Shown piece by piece: positions 7,909 to 63,819 of a DNA stretch of 64,000 nt. The position numbers and the translations under genes are program-made. Origin of the DNA: Nereocystis luetkeana. Taxonomy: Eukaryota > Sar > Phaeophyceae > Laminariales > Laminariaceae. The stretch spans positions 186,001 through 250,000 of the forward strand of contig JARUPZ010000018.1 in the NCBI GenBank assembly GCA_031213475.1. The letters run 5' to 3'. Under the pieces are notes generated by a model. That model saw nothing but the letters and a program-made list of their open reading frames with translations. It was not told the origin of the DNA and did not search any database. How positions within the stretch are numbered: the first letter of the stretch is position 1; each line of letters opens with the position of its first letter.

Positions 7909-9230
7909 TACAATCTGGGAGAAATGAAGGTAGGCTGTTCAGGTGTTTTGGTTCCTGTTAGGATCAAGGTACGGGCGAAGACCCAAAACCCAACCCCTGA
8001 CTCTAACCCTAACCCTAACCCTAACCCTGACCCCAAACCGCAACCAAAACAGGCCAAAACTTCCCATAAACAAAGAGGACCTTTAACAATCTGGGAGAAG
8101 GGATCTTTAAGTTGGTAGGCTATTCAGGTGTTTTGGACCCTGTTGGGATCAAGGTACGGGTGAAGACCCAACTCAACCCCTGACTCTAACCCTAACCCTA
8201 ACCCTAATCCTAATCCACACCCTGACCCCAAACCGCAGCCAAAACGGGCCAAAACTCGCCATAAACGCGGCTGCGCCGCGTTTGCATCGAACCAGGAAAT
8301 TACTCAGTTGCGGACGACGATTCCGAAGCGTAGACCACGCTACTCATGTTTCGAGTAGGTTTAGCAATCTGGGAGAAGGGATCTTTAGAGGTGTTTTTCA
8401 CTTGAAAAATGTGTAGCGTGGTCTGCACTTCGGAATCGTCGTCCGCATCTATATCTATCTGAGAAAGTTCCTGGTTCGATGCAAACTCGGCGTAGCCTCG
8501 TTTATGGCGAGTTTTGGCCCGTTTCGGCTGCGGTTTGGGATCAGGGTTAGGGTTAGGCTTAGAGTCAGGGGTTGGGTTGGGTCTCTGCCCGTGCCTTGAT
8601 CCCAACAGGAACCAAAACATCCGAACAGCCTACCAACCTAAAGATCCCTTCTCCCAGATTGTTAAAGGTCCTCCATGTTTCAAGTCAAAAAAATCCCTAA
8701 AGATCCCTTCTCCCAGATTGCTAAACCTACTCAACGCGGCAGCCGCGTTTGCATAGAACCAGGAAATTTCTCAATTAATTGCGGTCGACGATTCCGAAAT
8801 GCAGACCGACCTACGCAATTTCTAGTCGAAAACACACCTGAAGATCCCTTCTCCATGCATTATCCATTGCTAAAGTTACTCGACTACATCGAGGTCCTAA
8901 TAATACATACAATACGTGAGCTCGGATCTTTAGGTTGGTAGGCTGTTCAGTCAGGTATTTTGCTTCCTGCTGGGATCAAGGTACGGGCGGAGACCCTAAC
9001 CCTAACCCTAACCCTAGACCTGGCCCCAAACCGAGGCCAAAACGGGCTCAAACAGGTCATACGCGCGGCTGCGCCGCGTTTGTTTGTGCATCGAACCAGG
9101 AAATATCGAGATTCCTCAATTGCAAACGACGAATCCGAAGGGTAGACCACGCTACCCAATTTGAAAGTCAAAAGCACACACTCGAAGATCCGAGCTCACA
9201 GCTTGTAAAACCTACTTGCTCTCTACACCT
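7909..9230. mobile_element. Cluster of TIR elements carrying internal telomere-like repeats
   Basis: At least four or five copies of one element of about 300 bp lie here in both orientations: roughly 7909-8065 (+, partial), 8088-8360 (+), 8366-8666 (-), 8690-8880 (partial) and 8926-9230 (+, diverged end). Intact copies start CAATCTGGGAGAAGGGATCT and end with the inverted form, AGATCCCTTCTCCCAGATTG. Each carries a CCCTAACCCTAACCCTAA-type cluster, then a shared block with AAACGCGGCTGCGCC and a GACGACGATTCCGAA block. No transposase frame is present, so it is non-autonomous. A clean copy lies at 28044-28340. Confidence 0.8.
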
Positions 9231-37155: not shown

Positions 37156-39447
37156 CCGAGAGCTGTTATGGAAGGTACTCACACGCTTTGGCGTACCAAC
37201 CAAGATGCTGAGAATTATCCGTAATTTCCACGATGGCATGCGGGCTCGCGTGCGTACTGATGACGGCGAGCACTCGGAATGGTTTGATGTCACGCAGGGG
37301 CTGCGGCAAGGCTGTGTACTATCACCGTTACTGTTCAACGTGTTCTTCGCTGCTGCGTTACACGTCGTACTAGTACGCTTCAGCCAAGACGAAGCCATCG
37401 TAAGGGATTTGGTCCAACTCTGTGATGCTGGAGTAGTTCGAACAGAGAAGCAGGAGTCATTGGCGTGCATGCGAAGGGCTGTATGGGGCAAGTTGTACGC
37501 CGATGATGCAGGAATTGTCTCGAAGTCGGCTGACGGGCTCGCGAAAATGATGACAGTCATCGTGACTGCCTTCGAAGCAGCAGGCCTCACGGTGTCGGAA
37601 AAGAATACAGAGACAATGCTCCTACAAGCACCAGACCAGACAACCCTCGCACCACCGCTCGTCATCGAAGCGGTAGGCCAGAGGTATAAGCAGACGACCC
37701 AGTTCTTACCTAGGCGGCACTATCCACGAAAACGCTGGCCTCTCGCTCGAAATCGACCGACGGATCCGCCTCATGCGAGCATGCCTCAAACGGTTCGGCC
37801 CGGAGTTGTATGATAGGGCGACCGCCCCCCTTAGCCTTAAAGTCCGAATGCTGAAGGCCGAGGTGATTGAGACCCTGCTGTACGGGTGTGTGACGTGGAC
37901 CCTCAGAGCGGAACACTTTGCCAAGCTTCGAACGGCTCACCACCAAGTCCTGTTGCGAGTCGTTGGCTTCCAGCGCCGACTTCGTACTGACCATGCCACC
38001 CTCTCGTACGCGAAGGCCCTCAAGATGACACGTTGCGAGAGCATCGGAACGATCATTCGTAAACGGCGGCTCTTCTTTGCGGGGGGCGTGGCACGGCAAA
38101 GCAAGGAGCGATTACCCAATCGGGTAATGTTCGGGACGATAGCTGGTGGGGAGAACCCGAGACCAGGCGGGCAGTGTAAGACTTGGCATAGATGCATAGT
38201 CGAAGACCTTAGGGAGTTCAGAGCAACCGAAGGGTCAACGGAAGCTGCCCCCTTGGTGTTCGGAGTTGAGACCGCGTTGTGGTCCACTGCAGCCAAAAAG
38301 GCGGGGAAGTGGTACCGGGGGATCCTTGAAGCAGCCGAACAGTTCATGGTGAGGTGGCACGAGGCTGAGGCTGAGATGAGTAGGCAGCGCCACGCATCCG
38401 CCGTGGATGGTGTCCTAGGGAATGGGGGGGTTGGGGGCATCAGGAGAAGTGGCAGAAAGCCCGACCAAGGGAATGCGGAGAGGGGGGGGAACAGGAGGAG
38501 TAGAAGGGAAACTGCGGTAGCCGAAAGTAGGAACGAGATGGCAGACAGGGTAGCAAGGCACCAGGCCGACTAGGAAGTAGAATATGACCATACTACTAGT
38601 GCCACCAACTGATGCAGCTGGTTCGAACGCGGTCTTCCCGTGTCTTCTTTTTTTGCTTCGTTTTTTTCTTTCTTGCGCTGATTCTCCGTGGTTTTCATTT
38701 TATTTATTTCTCTTCCTTTTCTGATTGATAAGCCGTACTGAACGAGTCGTGTGGCGTGGTTGGATGACGAACCTGCTCTGCTCGTTTCGTATTGTCTGAC
38801 GCCAAGGGGCTGGGTTTAGTTGACGAACGCAGGGCGGAGACGGCAGACTGGGTAGCAAGGTACCAGGCGGATTCGCAGGGAGAACCTGGCTATACTACTC
38901 GTACCACAAACTGCTGCCGCCACCTACCTGGAGGGTGCTTTGGGCTTTGGTCTGCCTGTTATTTTCCCTTTGCTACTTTTTTTCCTTGGTTCTTTGTCTT
39001 ACTCTGTTTACAACCAGTGGTGTTTTTGTTATTTTTTCCTTTTTTTTCCAGCTTGTTTTTTTTCAAGTGTTGGCCACCTCGCCTGCGGGGGGGGGGCACG
39101 ACAGATTGTTTCTTCTATTTTTTTCTTTCATTTTGTTTGTTTTTCTTTTTTGATTTGTCTCCTTTGTTTTTGTTTTCTCTTTGATTGTTTCCTTTCGTTT
39201 CTCTCTTTCATAGATTGCGTATGGCGTGCCTGTCGTATCTAGTATGATGACATGGCATTGCATTGCCCACTGCTGTGCTTACTGCATACCAGGTACCTGG
39301 TACGTGGCAACGTAGTATCTTTCTGTGGCGTAGCTTTGTGGCCACATAACTTGTACCTCTTCTAGGATTGAAGAATCGGCACGGACACTGGTTGTGCTGG
39401 ATGTCGACGGATAGAAATAACGGTTTAATGTGAAGAACACACACACT
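37156..39447 (+). pseudogene. LINE copy D, 5'-truncated, one frameshift
   Basis: Starts inside the reverse transcriptase ([18 protein letters not shown]) and keeps the catalytic YADD ([10 protein letters not shown] near 37500). A shift near 37705 separates the frame 37156-37810 from 37773-38573. The C-terminal region and full 3' UTR follow, ending GTGAAGAACACACACAC at 39447. It is very similar to copy A throughout, so both inserted from close relatives. It lacks copy A's TACCAGGTA at 22773 and has the 16-bp double motif at 39287-39302. Confidence 0.9.
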
Positions 39448-41072
39448 ATTGTCATTCTTGTCATCCGACCATGTGCAGCATGAGATTGAACGTTGAACAC
39501 TCGAAACATTTCTGAAAGAAGAAATCCCCGGAAACAAAAGAAACCTATGCACAAGGTCTATCTGCCTTCTATATCTACTTCCTCCTGTGCTCTATCTACG
39601 ATACTCTCTTTGTTATCCTTGCTCCTTCCTTATATATTACCTGGTATTATTTGAATGTGTATTCCTTTGTTGAGTTTGTTCCTGGTTTACTTTTTCGCTT
39701 TCATCCCGGAATATGTTGGAGCCTTTCTTTATTGTGACTTTGTGAACAATGGTTAGATCTTGGCGTCGACGACAAATACACTTCGTATTTCGTTGTATGT
39801 TATTGCATGCAACGTTGAAGGTTCTATAGACTCGACATGCACGCTACATTCTGTACAGACTGCACACCAAAAGGGCCAAACCAGACGCCGATCGATGTAC
39901 TGTCCCGGTGACATATACCTTTTGGCAACAATATATTATACACATAAACATAACATGCGCAGACGGTTGTACCGCGTGCGTGCGTGCGTTCGTGCGTGTT
40001 TCGGCCTCTCTGTGTGCATCCCGTTGACGTCATCTAACGCAGCGCAACATCGACCTTACGTTGACGCCATCTAACGCAGCGCAACATCGACCTTATTTCC
40101 GGGACGCTGGGATTGTCGCCATCTCGTCACGCGCACTATATTGCTCCGTAGTGTGCGTACATATATTCGAGTATGGGAAACACCGGCGCCCGTTTCACGC
40201 GATCTTTTTCAAGATCCCACCAATGCTTTCTGGAAGTGCCGCCACCAGCGAAGGGGGTTAGCCCGAACATGGTTCGTTCAGCGACAAGTAAGTATGTACC
40301 AGGCGCCTTAACCCCTTTAGTACTGCAGTCCCGTTCCGGGGACAACGCATTTGGGATTTCAATGGTTTGTCCCCAAAGTGGGGCTGCAGTTCAAAATGGG
40401 CTAACGTCCGAAACAACGCAGGACCTGCCGGTTCTGGTTGCGCGCGTCGGCATTCCCGGTTTTCAACCTCTCCGGGAAAAGCTGCAGCAATGCCACGACG
40501 CGCGCTGTATGCACGATTAGGGGTGAACATTATTTCTGAGCCAAAACCTTTCTGACTGCCGTGGATCCGCGGCTGAGGAACTACCCAACATCGGTGGAAC
40601 ACCGCTATTCATAGTGTTTCCCGATCTATTAGTCGTTTACCTACGGAGACCATCGGATTGGACCTCCATTTTTTCTCAAAAGTCAGTTTTTGTGTGGGGT
40701 ACGGAGTTCCTCTTGAAAGAATTTATACCCTGTAGTTTTCGTGGAACGCCTACCACTACGGTAGAACATGGCATTGCTCATCGTGGTTTATATTTTGTCA
40801 GAGTTTTGAGTTGAGACAGGTAGCCACTCGCTTTAGGAGCCCAAGAAATACTTGGGGCGTACCTCCACCGCCGCAGGCGTCCTTACTGGACGCCCACAAG
40901 ATTCGACTCGTTGCCCATGGATACGTTGCCCAGCGCGTCGTTGAAAAGAAGCAGATTATGGAGCGGCTACGATAACTCACGGAAGTTGCCGACGTTGCTC
41001 TCACCTCTCAACAAACCCCGTCCACTCCCGACTGCCCCGCTTCTCGCGTCAAACACTTGGTTGCTGCCTCAG
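39448..41072. other. No exon resolved; MITE and tandem duplication
   Basis: Probably the 5' region of the redox gene, but no first exon or signal peptide could be joined in phase. A 37-bp unit (GTTGACGTCATCTAACGCAG and following) is duplicated at about 40022-40095. A family-2 MITE occupies 40312-40400. An ATG at 40173 with a donor-like GTAAGT at 40288 is a weak first-exon candidate. Confidence 0.4.
40312..40400. mobile_element. TTAA-associated MITE (family 2), copy d
   Basis: Left flank TTAA, then CCCCTTTAGTACTGCAGTCC. The right end is GGGGCTGCAGTTCAAAATGGG followed by CTAA. The termini and central GTTTGTCCCCAAAG match the family. Confidence 0.75.
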
Positions 41073-44000
41073 GAAACAACGTCGCCAAGCCCGCGTGGGG
41101 CAGCGTCGGGCAGAGACAGGTGAAGAGCGACGGGTAGGGGATCGACCCTCGCGGAGGTTTGCCGCCCTTGCTATATTTTCTCCTACGGTAACACTGTCTG
41201 CGCAAATTCTTGTGGCACGTCTCGCTCTTGTTTCGCACAAAGGCTTCCTGTGTCATTCATCAGGGCAACCGTCAGGAGAGGGTTTGCTGGAAAGCTTCTC
41301 TCTTCACGGGTCGCCGGCGAGACATGACATAGGAACACTCGTATCTGCGAGTCGTGGGTTCCCTCCCTAATACTCCGACGTCTTTGACCGAAGCCAGTTT
41401 ATGGTCGGTGTTACTTAAACTTTTCCACTTGCCAAAACCCGATGTCAGAAATGCCTGTATCACACGTTTATGCATGGGGCTATTTGAGTAGAGGATCCAG
41501 GTCAACCGTGCTCGGCATGCATGCCGTCTGGTTAGGCCCGGCACGCTTTCCACCTACGCGTGCTTGTGCCACGCGATTTTTTCGCTGTGTATATCACGTT
41601 CAATGTACGCCGCAGTTTTCACAGTCTCCGTCAATCAGGGCACCCCGACCGCCAGTGCGCATAACGCATACCAGGTACCTGGTATGTTCCAACCCTACGC
41701 GTGCGACGTCTGCGAATGTTTTGTCGCCTCTTTACGCCACCCTTCCCACGGTACCCGCAATGCCAACGACCTCCTGCCGCTCGTCATCGTCGACACCCCG
41801 TCAACGGTAGCTCCGCAGCGTCATAGGGGCAAGCTACGCCGATCAGGTATCGGCACCTCCTGGAGAAGATCGCCCGACGCCAAGGTGAGCTGTTGCCGTG
41901 GAGATGTTTACGGAGCAAACACGCCCCGGCGCCGGTTGGCGGCATTTCTCGTTCGCTGCTTACAGTTCGTATGGCGATGGGGACATTGCTACCCGGGTGG
42001 GCTTGTTGCCGTAGTGCTCCGGGTAGGAGGCAAAGACGTCACCTGACTGTCGCTCGCGCCGAAGAATGTAGGGTTTTGCATGTGGGCCATGGCCGCGGGA
42101 CCGGCTCGCTGCTGAAGAGATGTTCTGTTGGGGGACGCTCAACAGTAATCGCCGGTTCGACAATCGCTCTTTGTCTTGCTACACAGTCCGTTGACCTCGA
42201 AAACGACAGCGCGGATGCTGACCTTCCGGTCCATAACTGCCAGTCCAAACGGTTTGCTGTTACCGTATAGATCACGACCTCGGCGCCCGCTTTCACCCCT
42301 CCCCCACTGCCCCGCGTGTATGCTCCACCCCACTAAATATTGCCGGATGATAATACACCAAAGGGAGGTACTGTCGGAGGTTTTCCTGACGACACCACCG
42401 TCGAGCTCGACAACCAGCGCCCTCTTCGTGGGGTGGGGATTGCTCGTCGGGTACGACCTTTTCCTCAATCGGGACAACGCGTCAGAGCCGCTGGACATCG
42501 CGTGCGACGACGCCTCGCTCGCCGACGGATCGTGCCAGCGGGGATCATTGTCGGGGCCGATATCCTTCAGCAGGTCACAGGGCGCGCTCGACGGCGAGGG
42601 CGACGGTTCCAGAAGTCCGATCAACTACGCAACAGCTTACCTGGACCTGGACTGGCTGTACGGCAGGGACGAGGAATCCGCGGCAGCTCTCCGAACACTG
42701 CGTGCGGGAAAGCTGAACCTGACCGCTGATGGGCTCCCACACCTGCTGCACGATGGGTCGTGGCTCGTGAGTGAGGCGCAGCCTCGGACACGGGCTTGAG
42801 GCACTCTTGGTTTAAGCGAATCTGAAGGGCAGGACAGGCCAAGCAGGCGTGGTGCTCGTGACAAAGACGTTGTAGACGTACGCGCGGCAGGCAGGCAACC
42901 GAGTGGCAGGCACGGCTAGCCCCCTACGTAGCTGTGTCCACTCCTACTGGCTCGTTGTCGCTCGACGATGCTTTTGCGCCACTGAAACGTGTTGCTGCCG
43001 TTTTTCGTCCGATTTTTGTTTGGGACAGGTCGCAGATGAGCGGCCAACGAGGATGCCTGTAACGTTCGCGCTCATGACCCTTCTGCTGAGGGAACACAAC
43101 CGATGCTGCAACGAAATGGCCCCAGCGTGGGATGCTGATATGGACGAGGTTCGGTTGAACGGGAAACTGTCTGCTGTTTGCGCTGATCATGTCGATACTT
43201 GAACAAGCCAAAGTCGGTGTTGATATGTACCTCGATTACGTTTGTGGGGGTGCTCACGACGCTTTATCTTGGCGTTCGAAAGGCCAGGACGCCTTTTCAA
43301 TCAATTCGCAAGTGTTTTTCCCGTCTTGGAGATGGGACTTGGGGCTGGCATGGCCATGCAATTGAATACCAGGTACACGCTTTCGGCGAGGAGTTTGCAC
43401 CATATTTAGAACACAAAGCATGGGGCAGTAGTGACTGGCGCTACTCCCTCTCCCGCCGTTATTGCCTTGCGCCCACCCTCCCCCGAGCAGGATGCGTACC
43501 AGGTCTGTCGACAGTGGACGATCGCTGTATTTCAGGAAATATCTGAGAACGAATTTTCCGAGCGCCTAGTGGGTGGAAGCGCAAGGTACCTGGGGTCGGC
43601 CGCTTACAACTTTTTCTACGACGACGCCAACGATAACAACGCAGCGAACGCTCGTCGGCAGCCACATCGGTTGAGCGCCATGGAAATCATTGTGCGGTCG
43701 CGCCACCTAGCTCGAATGATCGGATCCTACGACGCGGCGACCAACGCCGGCGTGGACGCCGTGTTTTCCACTGTCGCTAACCCGGCGTTCTACTCGGCCC
43801 TACCGTCGACCGTGGGCTTGCGGGACGATAACTACGACGCCATCGATGAGGTGTGCGGTGCTTGCCGTTTGCCTTGAGACACATGATGCTTAGGCGCAAA
43901 GGGGAGGATGAGACAATCGGCAATCGACGATAGGGGGGGTGGGGGCACGGGTGGCCCTCTTGATCACTCCTCAAGCAGTGTGGGACAGCTTTCTGCTATG

Positions 44001-47000
44001 CTCATTTAGTTCACCACCTCCGTATGTTTCCCTCGGCCACTTGCCAATTGCCCTGCCGGGCCAACAACCTTGGTGGTGCGTGCGCAATGCACTTCATCCT
44101 CTCACCCCCGTTACACGACGAACGTTTTTTAACAGCATGGAATCGAGCTGGCGGCTGCGAGCGCGGATTTGCCTGGCTTGATCAAGAGAATCGGCGGGAT
44201 CGAGTCCATCGTTAGGGGGGGCGCGTCCTCGCGCGCACGAGCGGTGGATGTTTCTTTTATGGGCAAGGCTCCACCGTCATCGCCCCTATTCCATCTGCCA
44301 ACCCTGGCTATCCAGAGGGGGAGAGACCACGGTGAGTAACGGAGCGGTCACTGCGGCAGTACCGTCAGCGGACGCGTCGAGAGAAAGCGGAAACGGGAGG
44401 ACATGCAACCACCCAGCCAGAAATGAAACGCGTTTAGCCCTTCAATGCTCCGCACTCGAAATCCTCGATAATCGTTTATCTTCACCGGAGGCGAGGCTTT
44501 TCGTCCCCTCGACGTTCTCCACGGAACTCAGAGCAACGGGGATGAAATCTAGTCGGATGTTTTGCTCTCGTCTGACGGTGAAGCCACTCACCCATGAAGG
44601 GAAAAACCAGGTCAATTTTGCCGATGGTAGGTTCACTATTATAGGGGCCAGGTAGGGCTGAGAGACTTTTTGATTGGCGATCGAGAGGACGGTCGACACT
44701 TGTTCGGGACTTAGGCACCTCTATAAAACGAGCTTCCGCTCTAATTGTTGTGGGAATATGACAATGGTGGAGGTGGCTGAGGTGTTTCTTCTTCGTCGCA
44801 CCAATTCTGCCTTGGCCAGTTGCTCGATACCAGGGAGTAGAGAGAAGTCAGGGGGTAGGCGTTGAGTGGAGGCGCATTTGCGTGTGGCGTACTGGCAAAA
44901 GTAGTTTTCAGCATGCAACGTATCTATCCCAAGCTCCAAGCGGTACTGGGTAATCCGATCTCAATCTACGCTCTCGTGGATGCACGGGAAGCGTGAAAAC
45001 GGGGGTTCCTTGTTTCGTTTGGAGACACTCCGTTGGGAGGTGACACACCGCAGCAGCTTTGAGAGCTCGCCTGGGGCAGGCATCCACTCTACAGTTGTCG
45101 CTATTTGGCGACCACCGGTGAAGCCACACGTCGGTCGGGTCTAGGGGTGTAAGCGGTCCCAGTTGGAGGTGGACAACAAGCGATGCATCCAGTGGATGTG
45201 TCAAATGGAACAAGCTGAAGAGAGGTCGCATCATTGCCAGAAGGGGTACTGTGGAAAATTGACGTGATCAGCATGGCGTCGCCCACGCTGGTTGACCCGA
45301 TCCCGTCGATTCTCCTGTCTACGCGTGCTATCCATCCATCAACGTAGGGGTGGTGTGATTAACACCCGATGTCTGCGATTTGTTCCCTCCTACTGTACGC
45401 TTTCCTCTCTATTTATGTATGTTCTGCTCTCCCTTGCTCCCTCCTATCTCTACTCGGGCGGTAGGTATCCCGTCCTACAATGATGTACGCCAGGCATGCG
45501 GTTTATCCCGGGTAACGACATTCAAGGACATTGCATCGGATGGCACGATACAAGGGCGGCTGAAAGATACCTACGGCGACGTGGAATTGCTGGATGCCTA
45601 CACGGGAGCTTTGGCGGAAAATGAAGACGGGAGCGGATTGTTTGCCGGACCCTTGCTGCGGGTGAGATAGTGACCGGGGGCAGGGGGGGGGGTGCTTGGA
45701 CCACGGCCTAACCGATATTGCCAAGATACCAAGTATATGTATAGGGTTGACGTTCCAGCTCGTTGTGCTCGGGGCACTTGTGTGACCTAGAACGTTGACA
45801 AGACGGCCTTTATGTGCATCTACTGCGTGCTGGATTCGTCGTAGTCTACGTGAGCCGCTGCAGCTGAAGGCATCACGTGGGGGACGCAGGACGTGCTATA
45901 TATTCGCAACACGCCATTCGGGAAATAAAAAAAAAGGTTTCCCGAATGCATGGGCGTTGCTCGGCAGCACGTTATTTCGATGTGCATGCTGTCGTTCAAG
46001 TATCGACAAAGGCGGGGATCTTGATTGATTCCCGACCCCGTTTTTTTCATTTTACGACTAGATGCTGCTTCGGCTACAAAAACCAACTTGCGTGCCACCA
46101 GAGGGCGGGACCAACCAGAGCCGATGCATCACAATGTTTGCGGAATTCTAGGGAGATAGCTTTGGGATCTCTCCAGCCGTCAGAATGTATTTCGGAGAAG
46201 GCGTTCCGTTCGACAGGCCACGCCACAGTGATAGCATGGAGATCACGCGATCCACGTGCTCTAACGGTCCTGTGTATCACAAGCGGCGTTTCGTAAAGAG
46301 TAAAACAAGCGGCATATTTACCTTGGAATATACGACAACGACTCGATCGTAGGGCAGCCTCCACACCATGGGATCGAGCCTTCAGATATTTCGTGACACC
46401 GCCCGCCCTCAGACATGAGATGTGTGGGCGGGCCGCGGAGCCGAAAATTGGCGCCATGTCGTGATTCCACGTGCTCTAACGGGTCTGTGTATCACAAGCG
46501 GCGTTTCGTAAAAAGTAAACAAGTGACATATTTACCTTGGAATATACGACAATGACTCGATCGTACGGCAGCCTCCGCACCATGGGATCGAGATTACAGA
46601 TATTTCGTGACACCGCCCGCCCTCAGACATGAGATGTGTAGGCGGGCCGCGGAGCCGAAAATTGGCGCCATGTCGTGATTCTAGAAGCTGGTACCGGTGG
46701 TGAAAGTTTGGATGGACGTGTGACGAGGGAGTTTTGTTTTTGTACTTCCCTCGTTCCCTCGCATTGGTGCTCCTTTGGGCCGGCACCATTCCGTGTGCGC
46801 ACGCACCTCCCAGGAAGCTGACAGCTGACCTTCGGGGAAAAGCTAGCTGACGTCCTGAATCAGCACACTGTATGGCTTTTGGTCTGGTCTGGGTCACTGA
46901 CAAACGAGCCGACTTTTTCAGGTTCCCGTGTACCTCGATGTACCTGAGAAACGACCCAAAACGCTCAAATTACCACTTTTGATGCGCGTACGTACCAGGT

Positions 47001-47479
47001 ACCAGGTACGAAATTGTCGTAGCTTTGTTTTTCCTGTTGCGTAGATTAGTTTCCTTGCCTTTCATAATGTTTTTTTTACAGCAGTACGAAAATCACAACA
47101 GTGTTCAAAACAATACAAAGAAACACGAAACAAAAAAAAACACACACACACACACCAGGTATGCCTCTGTATTGCAAAGTCTCTTTTGACTACAACCCCC
47201 CGCCCTAACCTTTCGTTTTCTGCCTTTGTTCTCCGCATTTTGATTTCCGCCCCCCAAGGCCGTGTTTTTGGAGCAAATGTACAGAGCTATCGTGGGAGAC
47301 CGTCACTATCACTCGCACAACACGCAGAATGAGGATACCAGGCTCTCCACGCTCAGTGGCCTCATTCTCGACAACTCCTTGGTCTCGTCCATACCGCTGG
47401 ATACCTTCACGGCTACCAATACGACGCCACCGCTGACCAATCACTTGGTCAACTTCAAAGAGGTTTTTCTCGCGGATGG
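41073..47479 (+). CDS. Animal-type haem-peroxidase-like domain (eight exons)
   Basis: Landmarks of the family appear in order: GNNVAKPAWG, YADQVSAPPGEDRPTPR across a splice, LFVGWG, RDNASEPLDIACDD, DLDWLYG, TLLLREHNRCCNE (catalytic Arg and haem-linking Glu present), DAYQVCRQWTIAVFQ, GIESIVRGG, IQRGRDHG joined across the 44331/45465 splice to IPSYNDVRQACGL, and LEQMYRAIVGDRHYH. The distal motif usually WGQFLDHD reads WGLLVGYD, and the proximal motif usually FRYGHS reads NPAFYS. Both haem-contacting histidines therefore appear as tyrosine, and the haem-linking Asp as Gly. The fold looks complete but classical peroxidase chemistry is doubtful. Donors include GTGAAG, GTGAGC, GTGAGT, GTTCGG and GTGAGA. 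The domain should face outside the cytosol. Confidence 0.88.
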
Positions 47480-50400
47480 GTGAGCCACCGATGTACACCA
47501 CCTGTGCCTGCACGTGTCGATATGTTTTAGCTCTCGACAGGGGTCCACAATATCCATTTTGCCACTGTTGCTTTGCGCACGTGATCTCCATGGTGATTGC
47601 AAGCATGTGTCCTCGAGCCATGGGCGCAGTTGTAGAGGGGTAAAAAAAAAAACGCATGAAGGTCGCTCTATTGGATATTTCAACAGGTACGACTTCTTTC
47701 TCGCGGTGTGAGCGGTGAGGTCGAGGATGTCGTCGAATCCCATCGTTAAAAAGCTGTGTGTGATGCTTCGATCGTGCGTACTACGGATTCGCACGGCCTC
47801 ATGCTGCGGAGTTCGACCCGTTGTGGGGCTTATCCTTAAAATCCCTGTAGAGCGGATGGAAGGGGTGGAGTGATCGGTATCGTCCGGGCGTTTGGGGCGT
47901 TCTGCTCGGCGAGGCTCCCCTGCGACCTCACTAAGGCACGAGCGCAGCATGGTCCTTTTCTGCCGGTCGACCCACTCGGCTGATACTACTACAATGGTTC
48001 TGGAGGAGCCGACCAACCGTCGCCCTCGACCCGCCCTCCGTCTCAAAAGGGATGCGTGGTCATAGTTCAAACGACTAAGGCAAGCAAAAAATGAGTACAC
48101 CCCCCCCCGCACCCCGCACGCGTGTACGCCTCGCGACGCAGGTACAAGATCGCCTGGGATGGGTGGGATAAACGACAAAATATTTCTATGCACATCAAGC
48201 TTTCGGCGAAGGGCATAGAAGAGGAAGGAATGATTGTGAGTGCGGACTGATGAATCAGGCGGGGTGGGCGTCGTCACATACCTCGTGCCGATGGTGAAAT
48301 GCACAGGTCGACCGAGGCCATGCAGATCTATTTTTACGACAACCTCGAGATGCTTGAGTCCCCGCGCGAAAAGGGTTCAGCGCCCTCGGCCCTTGCGCGA
48401 CCGGTCTAGGGTTTGTGCCGAGTCGTTCTGTTGAACTGGCGCGCCGGAGTGCAGAGAGTGAGCCCTGCGCGGGCCCCGGCACGTGAGGGCGCTCAGAAAT
48501 CGCACCTAAATTACCCCCAAACGTTTCCACGATAGGATAGTTAAGCCCTAGTATTGTCGCTCGCTCAGCAATCGTTGCTCGCTCGGTGGGCCTTGGGATA
48601 TCGCACGCGAGTTTCGTATGCCGTCTGGGCGGGCGTGTTAGAGAGGCGCGCGTTTTCATGTCGGAGTTCTGCGAACCACTCGTCGCACTCGGTGGCAGCG
48701 ACGGCTCATTAGAAACATTGATCGCGGGGAAACGGCAGCCTGCAGAAAGGGGGGCAGGGGCAACGTGTCCACGCCTTCCGCTGGCGGAGTGGAGATCGTC
48801 TTGGTTCTTGTGATTGATCCGTTGCCGTCGTCACCCAGCGCGCGTGGGACCACCTCCGCTGCGTATTTCCCAAGTTCTGATCGCACCTCGTTCGTCCGCG
48901 CGTTCACTTGTGTTTGTGTGTATTAGTAGGCCGCTTGGGTGGTTCTTGTCATTGACTTGGTCCGTATATAAGGGCGTAATACTCCTCCGACCTCACCTCC
49001 CCCGGGGTGTCCCTCCTGCTGCCGCTTTTGCTGCTGTTGCTACCCTCTACGTTTATGCGTGACGCTTTTTCTGGGCATCCTCGCGGTCGAAACAGGGCGT
49101 CGGGTTCGGAGGGGACAAGATGGGGAACACCGGCGACTTCGTTGTATGCATGCTTTGGGACTGCAATGTCACATGTTCAGACCTTAGTGGACCCAAAGGG
49201 TGCGTTGCGGCGCGGGTGGAGTCTGCCCATGGGTTGATGATATAAACCAGCAGAAAGCACGCAAAGCGTGGGCCACGAAAGGGCATATGAAGCGTTTCCG
49301 TGAATCGGCGCCACTCGCGCGCGTCTAAGCGCTTGCTTTACAGTCTCTATTAGAGTGTTGGGTAATGTGTGTGCTGTACTAACAGTTGGAACCTTCGTTC
49401 TACGACACGATTCGCTACCACCACCCCCCCCCCCGACGCGCTTGGTGGGATGCAGCTCACCCTTCATGCGACTCGCCGAACACCTCACGGCGCGCGCAAG
49501 CAATGCCCGCCTGATCCTTGAAAACCCCACTTGCTACGTCCCGGCATTGTAGGGATGCGAGGGTCCATGGCCATACGACTACGTCCATGCATGATATCGA
49601 GTACAGCCTCCCCCCCCTCCATGACCCTGGCATCCATATGCCAATCTGCCTCAAAAATAATTCATAGTAGGATGCAGCCCACCCTTCATGCGACTCGCCC
49701 AACACCTCACGGCGCTTCGCGCTTGGTGCAAGCAATGTTTGTCTGGTCGGTAAAAAATCGACGTGCTATGTTCCGGCATGGTAGGGATGCGAGGGTCTAT
49801 GGTCATACGACTACGGTCATGCATGATATCAAGCACACTCACCCCTCCCCAGGCGCGCGCGCCTTCCCTCACCTCCTGGCCACTGGAAATCGCGTGAGAG
49901 CGAATGCCGGTTCGCCTTCGCGCTAGAGATGCGCTGGCAGCCGTCGTTCCTACGACCACTATTGAGGCGGTCGATCAGTGTAAATGCCCCCCTTCTTTCG
50001 CACCCATTTCCCTCAAACGCGTATTATCGCTCGTCTCTGCCTCCGCCTACAGGCATGATCTGCCTCCTATGGATGCCGAGGGCCCCCGTGAGCTCGAGGT
50101 CGTGAACGTTACCTTTGACGGAGAATGGACTAGCATAACGTTCCTCCGCTGGGGCTTGGGAAACGACGATTCCGTGAGTGTCCGTTCGGGGCATACAGTG
50201 TGGGCGGCAGCGGTCACTCGTCAGCTCCCAACGTTGTACGCCGCCCGCGTGACTTCGATGATCAAAGTATGCACTGTACAAACAATGCGTGGCTTGCCCT
50301 GATGGGTGTGTTCATACCTGGTGCGTATGTTTTATGCCTTCGCTTTTGTTGCTCGAAGTTGTATTCAATATTATTGCTTCGAGTGTGATGAACCCCGACT

Positions 50401-53400
50401 CTTCTGCTCCAAGGCGTTGATCTTGCGAAATCGATACATCCGTGTGTTGTAACCTGCCACCGCCGTTTTGCCGGACAGTAGCGCCGCCACCATTTCCTGC
50501 CGTAGGGGACCGCGACGCAAAGTTGTCTTTGGGGTGACACCAACGAGTCGACAGCGACCTGAGATGCGCCATCCGAGCTGCTGGCGCCGGGCCGTCCCAC
50601 GCAACGTATTTTTGCACAAATGTCGCCGTCGTCGCCGTACCCCACTTTAAAGTCGTCTTCTTCGGTCGCTTCTCAATCGGCACGCAGGACTACGCCCTCA
50701 CTCAAGATGTGGCATCGGGCGAAAGCACGCGTATCATCTACGCGTGGCGTCCGGGTCAGGGCACGGACAAGCACCCCGTAGACCAGCGCGGGAGCGCCTC
50801 GCTAAACTTTAGGGACGGCACCGTGACCTTCATCTGCAACGGTGCCGGCGACTACTACGCGCTCCATGGCGCGCTGCTGCTGTTTGTATGGTTGATCGTC
50901 GCGCCCTACGGCATCTATCAGGCCAGGTGAGAGATACAATAGGCCGTCTGCCTCGATGGCACCGGTGGTGTGCGAGAAGATAACGGCCAACCACTTTCCT
51001 GTTTCTGACTTTTTTCAAGGGAAGGAGGTAATGTCGCCCCGCAGCGCGTTGTCGCTGCCTGGTTGAAGGCCACCGTCAGTTGGGATGGTCACAGGCCGGC
51101 GTACTTTTGTTTTTTTGTTATGTTGTGTCGTTGTACGCTGCACGAGTACGTGTTTCCAGCAGGCACTCACTCGCGCTATTTCAGGAGCCGCACGGTTTCG
51201 TCTCGAGGCCGTTGCGAATGAGATGCTTCCGGTTCGGGAGAGAGTGGGAACTAATTTGCGATTGTTTGTCGAGACGGTGACGGATGGCACTTCCCAGGCA
51301 CAGTAGCGTCCCTGTGAAGTTGTGTGTTTTGATCTTCCCGGGAAGCCATGTCATTCAATCCGGAGTATCTACGTATGGTAGAGGGTTTCCCTCGATCCCC
51401 ATTGGCAGCAGCCCTCTTAGGCGGTTTTGTTTTTCTTATTACGACCAACGCCTGCAGAAGGACGTGGCTGCCCCGACCAGGCTAGCAGTAGACAAGGTTC
51501 TCACAGCTATCTTGTCAGACATCTTGAGTCAACCGTAGGAGCAGTGCTGCCTGTTTTGCCACAGCTGCCCGCTGCCAATGTACACAGCAAGGCCTTCTGG
51601 CGGAAACGCGACAAGTTATGCGCCCAGCGAGCGTTCCGACGCATGCACGCCCGTAGATTTGCGAGTATTCAGTCTATCTGTCATGTGGTTCTTGAAGCTC
51701 AATTGGTTCCCGACCTGCCCTGATATGCAGTACGTTTAGCGTTGCTTTTTTTTTTCCGTCCGTTTCATCTGCGATGTATGCTCCTCAGTGTTGAATGTCT
51801 GCTCGAAGGAAGAACAATCGGTACAAGCCATACCGACGTGAAAAGTACCACGCACACACACATACGTACATATGTCACGGTGTCACCGTGAGCACGCCCC
51901 TCGGGAAGAGTACAGCTAGCACCGCGCACACCACCTGGATTCCTCGTTCTTGTTGCTCCCTCTGCCGTGGCATCCGTCGTTGGCAGGTACCGGAAGGGTA
52001 GAACAACTCTGATTGGCAACCTCTGGTGGGAAGTGCACGAGGATTGTATGGTTATCTGTGCCGAGGCGTTGCTTCCCCTTGCCATCACGGCCATCGTTAC
52101 CACGGGTGGCCCGCACAACTCAAGTCACGCCAAGTGGGGTGAGAGGCACCCACGAAATGAACAGGAGCCAGGGTTGAAGCGGGGCCGGGAGGGCAGACAA
52201 ACGAGAAACATTATTTCGAGGGACGGGCGGACGGACGGACGGACGGACGGGGTTACTCTTGTAAATCGTAGGCAACGATCTACTGTAGTCGTGAGAAGCA
52301 AACGGCGATATGTTGACTGTAGTACGCGAAGAGCCCTCCCATAACGCATCAAACGCCGACAATATCTTAACCACAACACGACAAACTATTGTATTGGAAT
52401 AACGCCCGCAGACCAGTGCATGGACACAAAAAGGCGCGACCCGTATCGCTACGGCACTCCCTCCCTCGTACACCTTGCGATCAAGCTACTGTAGAGTAAG
52501 CGCCTGTCCTTTTGCGCTGCCTTTTTTTCGTACATTTTCCTCGGAAGGCAGCAAACACTCGCTGCATGATCCTAGGCGACGACATTTGAGGCGTTCTGCG
52601 ATAGAGGTTTGCCCTAAATTCTCCGAGGCTCCTGTCTTGAGGGGCTGCACACCTCACCCGAAAACTGGCATGAGCAGAAACCGAATCGCATCTCGATGAG
52701 TATTCCCATGGCCCAAGTATGCAATTCCCGTCACTGTTCGAAACAAGATTGGCATTCCGACGATTTTTGGGTTAGAGAGCCCCGTCATTCAGAAGACATC
52801 CTGGCGCGGAAATGTGCCACTTCTACTACCGTAGAACGCATCATTTGCCTTGTGTCAAGGCGAGCTAAACGCCCTCATGTTGGATAGAATCCGGGTCACC
52901 TCGTCGTGCGCCCCCCCCTCTCTGTTTTTACCTGTCGCCTGTCTTGTGCTTTTACCTAGGGTTCTACATGCTTGCGGCGATTATAGTGCAGATTATGACC
53001 GGATGGGCTCGTGCCAGGGCGCTTTCGGGCAAGAGCAACAACTTCTCGCGGTTCCACAGGGTCAGTTACTGTAAATATTATTTTGTCATGAGTGTTGCGC
53101 AACATACAATGTCGACTGAATCTCTTGCAGTAGCTGTGAGGGCGTAGACGCTGCCTCTTTCACGCGGATGCATGCCGTCCGTTCATGCTGCTGGCTGTAG
53201 TCGGCCGGGTGTTGCCTTTTCTTCTGCATGTACTCGTGTTCCACGATAGTTTCTCCGCTCTTCCCCTTGCTCGGCAGGCGAACAAGCACATCCACATCTA
53301 TGCCGGGTGGTTCGCCTACGTGTCCGGGCTTGTGCAGTGTTACCGCGGCCTCGAGCTCGTCTCGGGTTCAGACAAGCTCGTCTTCTCCGCGGCGGATATG

Positions 53401-56400
53401 GATTTTTCGGTCAGTCTGCTCGCGCATCCGTCCGTGTGTTGCATGCATGGGTGTTTGATGCGTCCTTCTCACACGCTTGGCTGGAGTGCTCGAGGCAGCA
53501 ATACAAGAAGGGGGCTTGGAGTAGGAGGTAGAGGCAAGGTAGAGGTAGGGGTAGAGACACGAGGAGAAAGTGAATGACAGACGGATGAACAGCTCGGCAC
53601 GGTGAAGGGTGGGTGCAAGCGTAGAATAGGGAGTGGTGCCGACGCGATTTCTTGGGGCGAAAATGAGAGGTTCTCGCTCGTTGTACTCATTATACACTAC
53701 ACGCGGAACACCTGCAAATTCAGTTTTGAAGAATGCAGGGATGTGCTGATGATCCCTTGCTCCGACCACAACGCTGACCCGCGGTGTCTTCTGCCGAATT
53801 ATTGTGGCCAAACCGTAGGATAGGGCGAGAATAAGACTAACAGTTACTGCAGGAGTAGCAGAGGAACAACGCTAAGGTGGCTGAATTGAGCAATCACAAA
53901 ATCAAACGTCGAAACTCACCGCGCTAGCTGGCGCCGTTTCCTCCCCTCCCGTCGGACGAGGGCAGCTGGGCAGCTTCCATATCATCACGAGCATCGTGTT
54001 TCCGATATGGATTGCGCTTGTGCCTCTCGTCTTCATCGTCCTGGAAGGGCGGAAGCAGTTCGCGAGGGTGAGCACGCGAGCGAGTCGGTTACGTAGCACG
54101 AGCCCCAACAATTGAGCAAGGAAAGGCAGGCGGGGGGGGGGGGGGGGGGGTGTTCGTCCCCTGCGTGCGTTCCCCCATCTAGGCGGCCGGTGACATGTCG
54201 TTAGGTTCTGGGATGTGCTGGATAAGTGTTCGGCACCGGGAAAAAGGAGTTGTCCGGTGTCGCTTGGCACCGTTGTTCATGATTTTAGCTTTGCGAAGCC
54301 TGGCGCAAAACCTGACAACCGATCGACCTCGCCGGGGGTTTCCCCGCATGGCGTCATTTGTTTCGCCTCGTGCCACGATCCTGACTAAACCATCACGTTA
54401 TAAAAGCGCCCCGCGCCACCCCAAGTTTGCCTCGCCACAAAAAAGCATCGCTTTCTCGTCCCATCCGCGATCAAATTGCGCCACGAGCGCTAGTTTCCAT
54501 AAAACGGCTCGCGTCGTGGTGAACCGGACCGCCCTCTGCTGTTGGTGGCGCCCGATGCAGTATTTCAACAAGGGGGCAGCCAATCTGTGTGGTGTGGTGG
54601 AGATCATTAACGAGGACTTCTCCGACGAGGCCATCCACAAGAAGGTGGAGGACCGGCTCATGCCCAGGACGGAGGAGCTACCCCTCTACACAACGCACGA
54701 GTTCAACGACAAGGTAAGCCACCAGGGCGGGGCCGTCGAAGTCGATTTTTATTTGGTTCAGCTTTCCATCTACTTTTATATTTCTCGACTTCGATCCCGA
54801 TTAGTACTGCTATTTATATAATGCTCAATTATGTACATACATCTTGTTGATTGGCATCTCCGTGCTTCTTCACCAGTGTGCTTCCACCAAGCAAAGGGTT
54901 TCTGGGATGTTTGTGAAGCGCTACGTCATCTCTTGGCCGCCGTATCGTATTAGGGGGGGGCCATAGTTAATAGGAACAAATATTGTCAGTAAAAATGGTT
55001 GAATGTATACTGGTAGGTTTTTATGTTTGCCACAGGTCCTATTAACTATGGTCCCCCGTAATGGTAGAAAACTTGACGCGAAGCAGCCGCACGTTGCCGA
55101 AGGTGCCGTGTACAGCCAACATTTGCTCTTTTGCGTGGCACAACTGGTCCTGGGGCGCACGTGATCGTTGGTCACTATAAATGCAAACCACATTCACTAT
55201 GTCCGCCTTCCCTCACTCGCGCCCCCTCGCCCACGGTGCTCAACGACATCGAAATCATGTACTGGTATACGTCTCAAGCACGAGGCGACACGGAGCAGAC
55301 ATAACCATAGCCGAGACCCCTCGAGTTGCCAAGCCCAAAACTTCACGATCACTCCAATCCACAGCTTGTTGTGTCCCGAGAGGGAAACAGGCGGGGGGTA
55401 GAACGAGCGTCCCAACCCCGCCCCGCCGCCGCCTTCTCCTCCTTTCCAGATCTTAAATGGGCGTTCGTGGGTGATCGTTGACGGGGCGGTCCTCGACGTT
55501 GGTCCTTTCGTCAAACGGCATCCTGGCGGCGCTCGTGTGCTCATGAATGTCATGGGTACAGACGTGACGTCGGAGATCATAGGAGAAGACGCCTCGATCG
55601 GTAACTCCAGCATGAAATTCAACCCGCACACTCACTCCAATGTAAGTGGGTGCAATTAGGTGAAAAGGGCATTGGGGTCAAAGGGAGGGGGTGAAAAGGA
55701 GGAGGGGGGGGAGGCTACGTCCCATACAGTTGACCGTATATCCTCGTCTCCGATCTACAGAGCTGTGTGATGGTCGTTCTCCAGCTGCCGCTGGTCACGT
55801 GCGCTCGCGCGGAGCCGTGTCGATCGCCTTGCTCGTTCCGGGCTGCCTAAGTTTCCCCGTGGTGTCACATTTTGCCCCCTGCATTTTTAATAGAAGGAAC
55901 GCTTCTTTGATTCCAATATGAATACGAGTCTGACTGCCGCTGAGGCACGCAAATCGTGAACAAGCCTCAGACTCCCACACTCAACTCCTCTTCCCCCCCA
56001 AAAAAAACGCCAAACGACCATGCCCGGACAAATGCCTGCGTGCATTAGACTGCCCTTGAGATCACGAGGAGCCTCATCGTGGGGTACATCGAAGAAGAAG
56101 ACGACATAGAGACGGGCAACAGCGATGAGGATGAGGAAGGTGGCGGGGCCAGCAGCGGCGCTGATGGTGGCTTCTTCAGCCGGTCCTTCTTACATGCTAG
56201 CCGAGTATCTTCGCATTCCGGCTCCGACAGCGAGGGTAACGATAGGCGCGGCTTGTCCCGCGCCTCGCACAGAAGCCGCCGTTCCTCCCGTTTGTCGATT
56301 TCTTCGCGTCCGTCTCTCGGAAGGGAGAAGTTAGGCCACACCGGTCGCCTTGCATCGTGGTCTGGCCCCGCCCTCAGCGGCGACGAAGTCGAGGGCAGAA

Positions 56401-63819: not shown

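What the first reader, a model, noticed from the sequence alone, without database searches (positions are those of the whole stretch)
41073..63819. DUOX-like fusion with a cytochrome b561/b5 relay in place of the NOX core
Phase-consistent exons place, in one transcript, an animal-type peroxidase-like domain, a DOMON-like segment, cytochrome b561, cytochrome b5 and a b5-reductase-like FAD/NAD module. Dual oxidases have the same logic (outer peroxidase, membrane haem wire, cytosolic flavin reductase) but use a ferric-reductase membrane domain. This would be an independently assembled transmembrane electron conduit. I know of no described family with this order, which is a statement of recall and not of a search.
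Basis: partly seen in the sequence, partly recalled or inferred. Interest (0 to 1): 0.92.

Follow-up and report, generated by a model that had tools for sequence, protein, structure and literature searches.

The report
Brown-algal pseudo-peroxidase transmembrane electron conduit
This seaweed gene encodes one very large membrane protein that seems built to carry electrons from inside the cell to its surface through a chain of haem groups, with a peroxidase-like head that has lost its own catalytic residues, so it resembles animal dual oxidases in layout although its membrane part is of a different family.

Summary
Order: peroxidase, DOMON, five-helix b561, cytochrome b5, Ser-rich linker, b5-reductase-type FAD/NAD module. 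Both gene ends are unresolved.

It is a family: 28 proteins, 24 with brown-algal labels; 12 of 28 predicted proteins hold all six parts. Some are named 'peroxidase', 'peroxinectin precursor' or 'delta-9 desaturase'. Listed rows of eight targeted open-access searches described no such order.

The peroxidase head looks dead: distal His 0 of 21 family rows, proximal His 0 of 22, both haem-ester residues 0 of 21, versus His in 26 of 26 and 28 of 28 outside rows. Candidate haem ligands of DOMON, b561 and b5 and the GTGxNP loop are nearly invariant. Human DUOX1's head also lacks haem (PMC7794343, passages).

Best reading: an NAD(P)H-driven trans-membrane reductase, a CYBDOM with built-in donor and pseudo-peroxidase head. 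It is laid out like DUOX but is not one. Terminal acceptor unknown.

The parts
41073..47479 (+). Exons 2-9: pseudo-peroxidase domain and linker to DOMON (41073-41119, 41811-41884, 42364-42766, 43029-43148, 43491-43850, 44136-44331, 45465-45661, 47259-47479)
   Evidence: Pfam An_peroxidase on five ORFs; tblastn of relatives; model; relative P0003 hits An_peroxidase at 3e-76
42434..42457 (+). Distal motif WGLLVGYD where intact relatives mostly have WGQxxDHD (His to Tyr, Asp to Gly, Gln to Leu)
   Evidence: Read off the frame; alignment census
43761..43802 (+). Proximal motif VFSTVANPAFYSAL where intact relatives mostly have EFxxAxFRxGHS (proximal His to Tyr)
   Evidence: Read off the frame; alignment census
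48142..48235 (+).
   Evidence: tblastn with P0012 (4.4e-4) and P0003 DOMON; frame fits
49096..49199 (+). Exon 11: DOMON with the candidate haem Met (GGDKMGNTGDF)
   Evidence: tblastn; Met in 24 of 24 rows
50053..50173 (+). Exon 12: DOMON
   Evidence: tblastn; frame
50688..50926 (+). Exon 13: DOMON end with candidate haem His (GTDKHPVDQRG) plus b561 helix 1 (YALHG); bridges the two domains
   Evidence: tblastn; His 26 of 27, helix-1 His 27 of 27
51987..54067 (+). Exons 14-17: b561 helices 2-5 (51987-52138, 52960-53060, 53278-53409, 53966-54067)
   Evidence: tblastn; ligand His census; five long helices in models of relatives; b561 4o6y and Dcytb 5zle among matches
54561..55641 (+). Exons 18-19: linker and cytochrome b5 with HPGG and HTH (54561-54713, 55450-55641)
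   Evidence: Pfam Cyt-b5 1.3e-11; tblastn; His 26 of 27 at each of two ligand columns
56049..56912 (+). Exon 20: end of b5 and long Ser-rich charged linker
   Evidence: tblastn with Laminaria P0015 1.1e-24
58080..59976 (+). Exons 21-23: b5-reductase-like FAD half with RSYN (58080-58241, 59202-59261, 59803-59976)
   Evidence: tblastn; FAD_binding_6 0.0093; fold of relative P0017 matches b5 reductases
60578..61755 (+). Exons 24-26: NAD half with AAGTGVNPM and LLWQNNDEADLF (60578-60692, 61282-61318, 61650-61755)
   Evidence: tblastn (middle exon only at E 0.02); GTGxNP residues 22 of 22 rows
62494..63819 (+). Exon 27: NAD-half strand (LLEVTAMISGD) and second long Ser-rich linker; donor GTAAGA follows; the gene continues beyond the window
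   Evidence: tblastn with P0003 and P0015; C-terminal exon not found in window

Best explanation
A single-gene, single-polypeptide trans-membrane reductase of brown algae. NAD(P)H reduces the FAD of a cytosolic b5-reductase module, which passes electrons to the tethered cytochrome b5, then to the inner and outer haems of a five-helix b561, then to a haem in the extracellular DOMON domain and on to an acceptor outside. The outer pseudo-peroxidase no longer binds haem in the normal way and most likely acts as a folded, calcium-stabilised cap for assembly, docking or acceptor access. Shown here: gene structure, domain order, family, conservation of the wire and loss of the peroxidase centre. Inferred: cofactor occupancy, direction of flow, topology and membrane, role of the head. 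Unknown: acceptor; I favour ferric or other metal complexes or monodehydroascorbate (about 0.5) over O2 (about 0.25).
Confidence: 0.75

Rival explanations
1. A functional DUOX analogue: electrons reach O2 and the protein makes superoxide/H2O2 at the surface, for example for haloperoxidases and wall cross-linking.
For: Same layout and a similarly dead head as DUOX1. A kelp study links H2O2-using haloperoxidases to wall remodelling (PMC11333212 passages).
Against: No NOX membrane domain found; the CYBDOM with data reduces metals. Saccharina already has an annotated NADPH oxidase/respiratory burst oxidase.
Confidence: 0.25
2. The head still binds haem through Tyr or Glu and acts as an unusual haem enzyme fed by the internal wire.
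For: Replacements are not random: proximal Tyr in 6 of 22 rows (the window's clade) and Glu in 15 of 22; catalytic Arg kept in 21 of 21.
Against: Both His and both ester residues lost; DUOX1, which also lacks the haem His, shows no haem density.
Confidence: 0.12
3. Two adjacent genes (secreted peroxidase; DOMON-b561-b5-reductase) wrongly joined here and in relatives.
For: Several database models are split or partial, such as P0012 and P0019 of Ectocarpus siliculosus, listed with the same longest contig length; others lack the head. No cDNA seen.
Against: The peroxidase-DOMON linker is conserved in relatives and lies open in the same exon as the peroxidase end; 15 of 28 models hold head and wire; the Ectocarpus split falls inside b561, not between head and wire.
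Confidence: 0.05
4. A decaying pseudogene.
For: Head residues lost; 5' and 3' ends not found in the window.
Against: No stop in 1951 codons of the model; the head losses are shared by all covering family rows including Discosporangium P0033, while wire residues are kept.
Confidence: 0.02

Closest known systems
Animal dual oxidases (DUOX1/2)
   Same: N-terminal peroxidase-homology domain without haem His, two-haem membrane wire, FAD/NAD module at the other end, one chain
   Different: Membrane core is a CYBDOM b561 with DOMON and b5 instead of a ferric-reductase/NOX core; no EF-hand family matched; reductase fold nearest b5 reductase; head of relative P0003 closer in sequence to a cyanobacterial peroxidase (8s6c, 6.6e-44) than to DUOX1 (1.4e-15)
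CYBDOM proteins (Arabidopsis HYP1, CRR)
   Same: DOMON with Met/His candidate ligands fused to a five-helix b561 with His ligands
   Different: HYP1 draws electrons from cytosolic ascorbate (PMC10784544, passages); this family adds b5, b5 reductase and a pseudo-peroxidase head
NADH-cytochrome b5 reductase and its b5 fusions (Ncb5or, nitrate reductase)
   Same: b5 and a b5-reductase fold on one chain (fold match; fusion architecture of the known ones recalled)
   Different: Known ones are not fused to DOMON-b561 or a peroxidase (recalled)
Bacterial peroxidases P0034-P0039 (three carry PF00404, recalled as dockerin; compare 'peroxidockerins') and cyanobacterial peroxidase 8s6c
   Same: Best-scoring peroxidases outside the family in my searches (29-32% identity; 8s6c)
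   Different: P0034-P0039 keep both haem His; none of the wire domains is among their listed Pfam domains

Membership tests
DUOX/NOX | Ferric-reductase-type (NOX) membrane domain | tested here: not met
   No Ferric_reduct family among all 15 Pfam families matched (E up to 1) by 22 of the 28 members; Cytochrom_B561 weakly in 17 of 22
DUOX/NOX | N-terminal peroxidase-homology domain lacking the haem His | tested here: met
   An_peroxidase hits; His 0/21 and 0/22; DUOX1 statement from PMC7794343 passages
DUOX/NOX | EF-hand module | tested here: not met
   None among the Pfam families matched by 22 members
DUOX/NOX | Makes superoxide/H2O2 from NADPH | not testable with these tools
   Needs expressed protein
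CYBDOM | DOMON domain with Met/His ligands | tested here: met
   Pfam DOMON in 14 of 22 members, best 2.1e-9; Met 24/24, His 26/27
CYBDOM | b561 membrane domain with four ligand His | tested here: met
   His conserved, five long helices in models; HMM and fold support only moderate
CYBDOM | Ascorbate as inner donor | not testable with these tools
   An attached b5 reductase suggests NAD(P)H instead (inference)
Animal-type haem peroxidase (active) | Distal and proximal His | tested here: not met
   Absent in 21 of 21 and 22 of 22 family rows; present in 26 of 26 and 28 of 28 outside rows
Animal-type haem peroxidase (active) | Calcium-site Asp beside the distal residue | tested here: met
   21 of 21 family rows
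Cytochrome b5 reductase | FAD/NAD fold of the b5R/FNR type | tested here: met

The most novel reading that the evidence does not exclude
Brown algae built, from a bacterial-like peroxidase, a CYBDOM and a b5/b5-reductase, their own dual oxidase: a pseudo-peroxidase-capped NAD(P)H oxidase or reductase with no NOX membrane part, in which the peroxidase head died in parallel with that of animal DUOX, in the window's clade with the same DH-to-GY change that the DUOX1 alignment shows.
Probability: 0.3. Interest if true: 0.88.

Novelty: new variant of a known kind. Interest (0 to 1): 0.74.

Why it matters
It would be a self-contained route from NAD(P)H to the cell surface in an independently multicellular lineage, made of parts normally found apart. 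It gives candidates for how seaweeds reduce iron, or make oxidants, at the cell wall. It also offers a second case of a dead peroxidase fused to a trans-membrane electron wire, with a wire of another family, which may show what such heads are for; the function of the DUOX head is called obscure in PMC4420034 (passage). Present database names (peroxidase, peroxinectin precursor, delta-9 desaturase, unnamed) hide it.

Tried and rejected
Canonical peroxidase activity: rejected by the residue census. NOX core: none matched. Two-gene reading: unlikely. My first joined model, used as the query, had an open, over-long first exon, a guessed start of exon 18, and lacked exons 10, 11 and all FAD/NAD exons; one search placed the start of exon 18 one base off and gave false stops; both were corrected. 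In one search I labelled the Arg of REHNR as the catalytic Arg (R in 7 of 17 rows); that was wrong: the catalytic Arg lies in the R-x-x-E motif (PMC4420034) and is kept in 21 of 21 rows. The upstream signal-peptide exon and the last exon were sought by tblastn without a convincing match. Members outside brown algae were not found: the only other hit was P0020, a peroxidase alone; but each of the three protein searches scored only the 7994-7995 candidates sharing most words, within a length range, so absence elsewhere is not proven. DUOX was not in the tree, which is midpoint-rooted, has three labelled animal rows and left out six aligned rows (P0013, P0028, P0032, P0050, P0057, P0062), so shared ancestry of the two heads is not excluded. 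NCBIfam gave only FNR-type and related matches far below its cut-offs. The fold lists for the two whole models are filled by few domains; DUOX was not among the 50 rows, which excludes nothing.

Literature: ten searches of the open-access library, of which eight aimed at this order or family and two at background. One search found none; the others gave capped lists (20 of 56, 6 of 6, 20 of 75, 20 of 3,900, 20 of 279, 12 of 21 and 15 of 214 papers). No listed title or abstract start described the order. Passages, not whole texts, were seen of PMC7794343, PMC10784544, PMC11554258, PMC6881991, PMC11333212 and PMC4420034. Most subscription papers and all bioRxiv preprints are outside the library.

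Full report
What is in the sequence. The region 41073-63819 on the + strand holds 26 internal exons of one gene. All have GT/AG sites, and the joined frame has 1951 codons without a stop. I chose the borders to keep the frame and fit relatives, so agreement of phases is partly built in; the independent support is that all 26 exons have a tblastn match to a database relative, the weakest being the 37-base exon at 61282-61318 (E 0.02). Pfam found animal haem peroxidase in five separate ORFs, two of them above its cut-off, and cytochrome b5 in another; the FAD match was weak. Exon 47259-47479 carries the end of the peroxidase and the linker up to the DOMON border, a stretch also present in relatives; exon 50688-50926 carries both the DOMON end and the first b561 helix. 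The 5' exon with the signal peptide that I read by eye in orthologues (P0002, P0003) and the 3' exon(s) were not found in the window.

The family. A search with the first joined protein returned 20 proteins, 19 family members and one peroxidase alone (P0020). A search with the DOMON-b561-b5 part of P0017 returned 25 proteins, 9 of them new. Taking at least half of the window's columns as presence, 15 of 28 hold peroxidase, DOMON, b561 and b5, and 12 of 28 hold also the FAD and NAD halves; these 12 include Ectocarpus, Pylaiella, Ascophyllum and Undpi1 rows. The other 16 are partial or split models. All are gene predictions as far as I can see. Identity of the window's protein is 62% to P0001, 55% to P0003 and about 42% to P0006 and P0007. 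In the peroxidase tree 19 family rows form one group (100/100), the window pairs with the Undaria row P0001 (99/90), there are two main groups of 6 and 12 rows, and Discosporangium P0033 lies outside them with weak support (81/50) (six aligned rows left out). The window is therefore very probably brown-algal; that is an inference.

The head is dead. I aligned 22 family rows (the window, 17 of the 28 proteins, and four peroxidase-only models P0030-P0033) with 28 outside peroxidases; P0040, P0049 and P0063 and family rows with only scraps of the head were left out, and rows with a gap at a column are not counted. The family rows lack the distal His (0/21; outside 26/26), the proximal His (0/22; outside 28/28), the ester Asp (0/21; outside 23/27) and the ester Glu (0/21; outside 23/28), while the catalytic Arg (21/21) and the calcium Asp (21/21) remain. 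The window's clade has Tyr at both His places; proximal Glu is found in 15 of 22 rows. Discosporangium (P0033) shares the loss, so it is probably old. In the HMMER alignment the human DUOX1 stretch opposite GLLVGYD reads GVFFGYH, so a DH-to-GY change appears in both; convergence is likely but untested. DUOX1's head lacks the haem ligand His and shows no haem density (PMC7794343, passages). A review calls the function of the DUOX head obscure and says DUOX separated from peroxidockerins (PMC4420034, passages). The best outside hits here are bacterial, three with PF00404, recalled as dockerin (P0034, P0037, P0039), and the nearest solved structure by sequence is a cyanobacterial peroxidase (8s6c, 6.6e-44 with P0003) far ahead of DUOX1 (1.4e-15). 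A descent from peroxidockerin-like enzymes is therefore plausible, and a common root with DUOX cannot be excluded.

How it most likely works. The plant CYBDOM HYP1 carries electrons from ascorbate across the plasma membrane to ferric and cupric acceptors, with two modelled His pairs in b561 and a modelled Met/His haem in DOMON (PMC10784544, passages). This family keeps that wire and adds cytochrome b5 and a b5-reductase module on the same chain, which makes NAD(P)H the likely donor. The head sits N-terminal, as in DUOX. I infer that it is a structural or docking cap. The terminal acceptor is open: metal complexes or monodehydroascorbate seem likeliest, O2 next. A kelp study lists an annotated respiratory burst oxidase besides haloperoxidases (PMC11333212, passages), so this protein need not be the only source of oxidants.

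Known or new. The order exists in databases under misleading or no names. No listed row of eight targeted open-access searches described it (lists capped). It is not a DUOX (no NOX membrane core, no EF-hand among the matches), it contains a CYBDOM, and it works like a DUOX in layout. I rate it a new variant of a known kind: known modules, a combination I found undescribed, with a clear mechanism to test.

Noticed in passing
P0012 and P0019 (Ectocarpus siliculosus): 'Peroxinectin precursor' ends after b561 helix 1 and 'delta-9 desaturase' begins in helix 3; both list the same longest contig length, 3745584, so they are probably pieces of one split gene.
   Followed up: partly
P0008, P0024, P0009 (Undpi1 7054, 7055, 7058): Nearly consecutive gene numbers on one scaffold suggest a tandem cluster of the second clade in Undaria.
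   Followed up: no
window 46303-46698 and 49496-49849: Two direct-repeat pairs inside introns (182 nt at 91%, 122 nt at 80% identity).
   Followed up: partly
window 41030-41072: The stretch just before exon 2 resembles the annotated start of the Undaria protein P0001 (RVKHxxAASGNN); either conserved intron sequence or a true coding extension.
   Followed up: no
window 56100-56900 and 62600-63800: Two very long Ser-rich charged linkers, one between b5 and the FAD half and one inside the NAD half before its last strand (as placed in relatives); possible regulated tethers.
   Followed up: no
window 37677-38573: Long ORF that looks to me like a retroelement fragment; no Pfam match at E up to 0.1.
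   Followed up: partly
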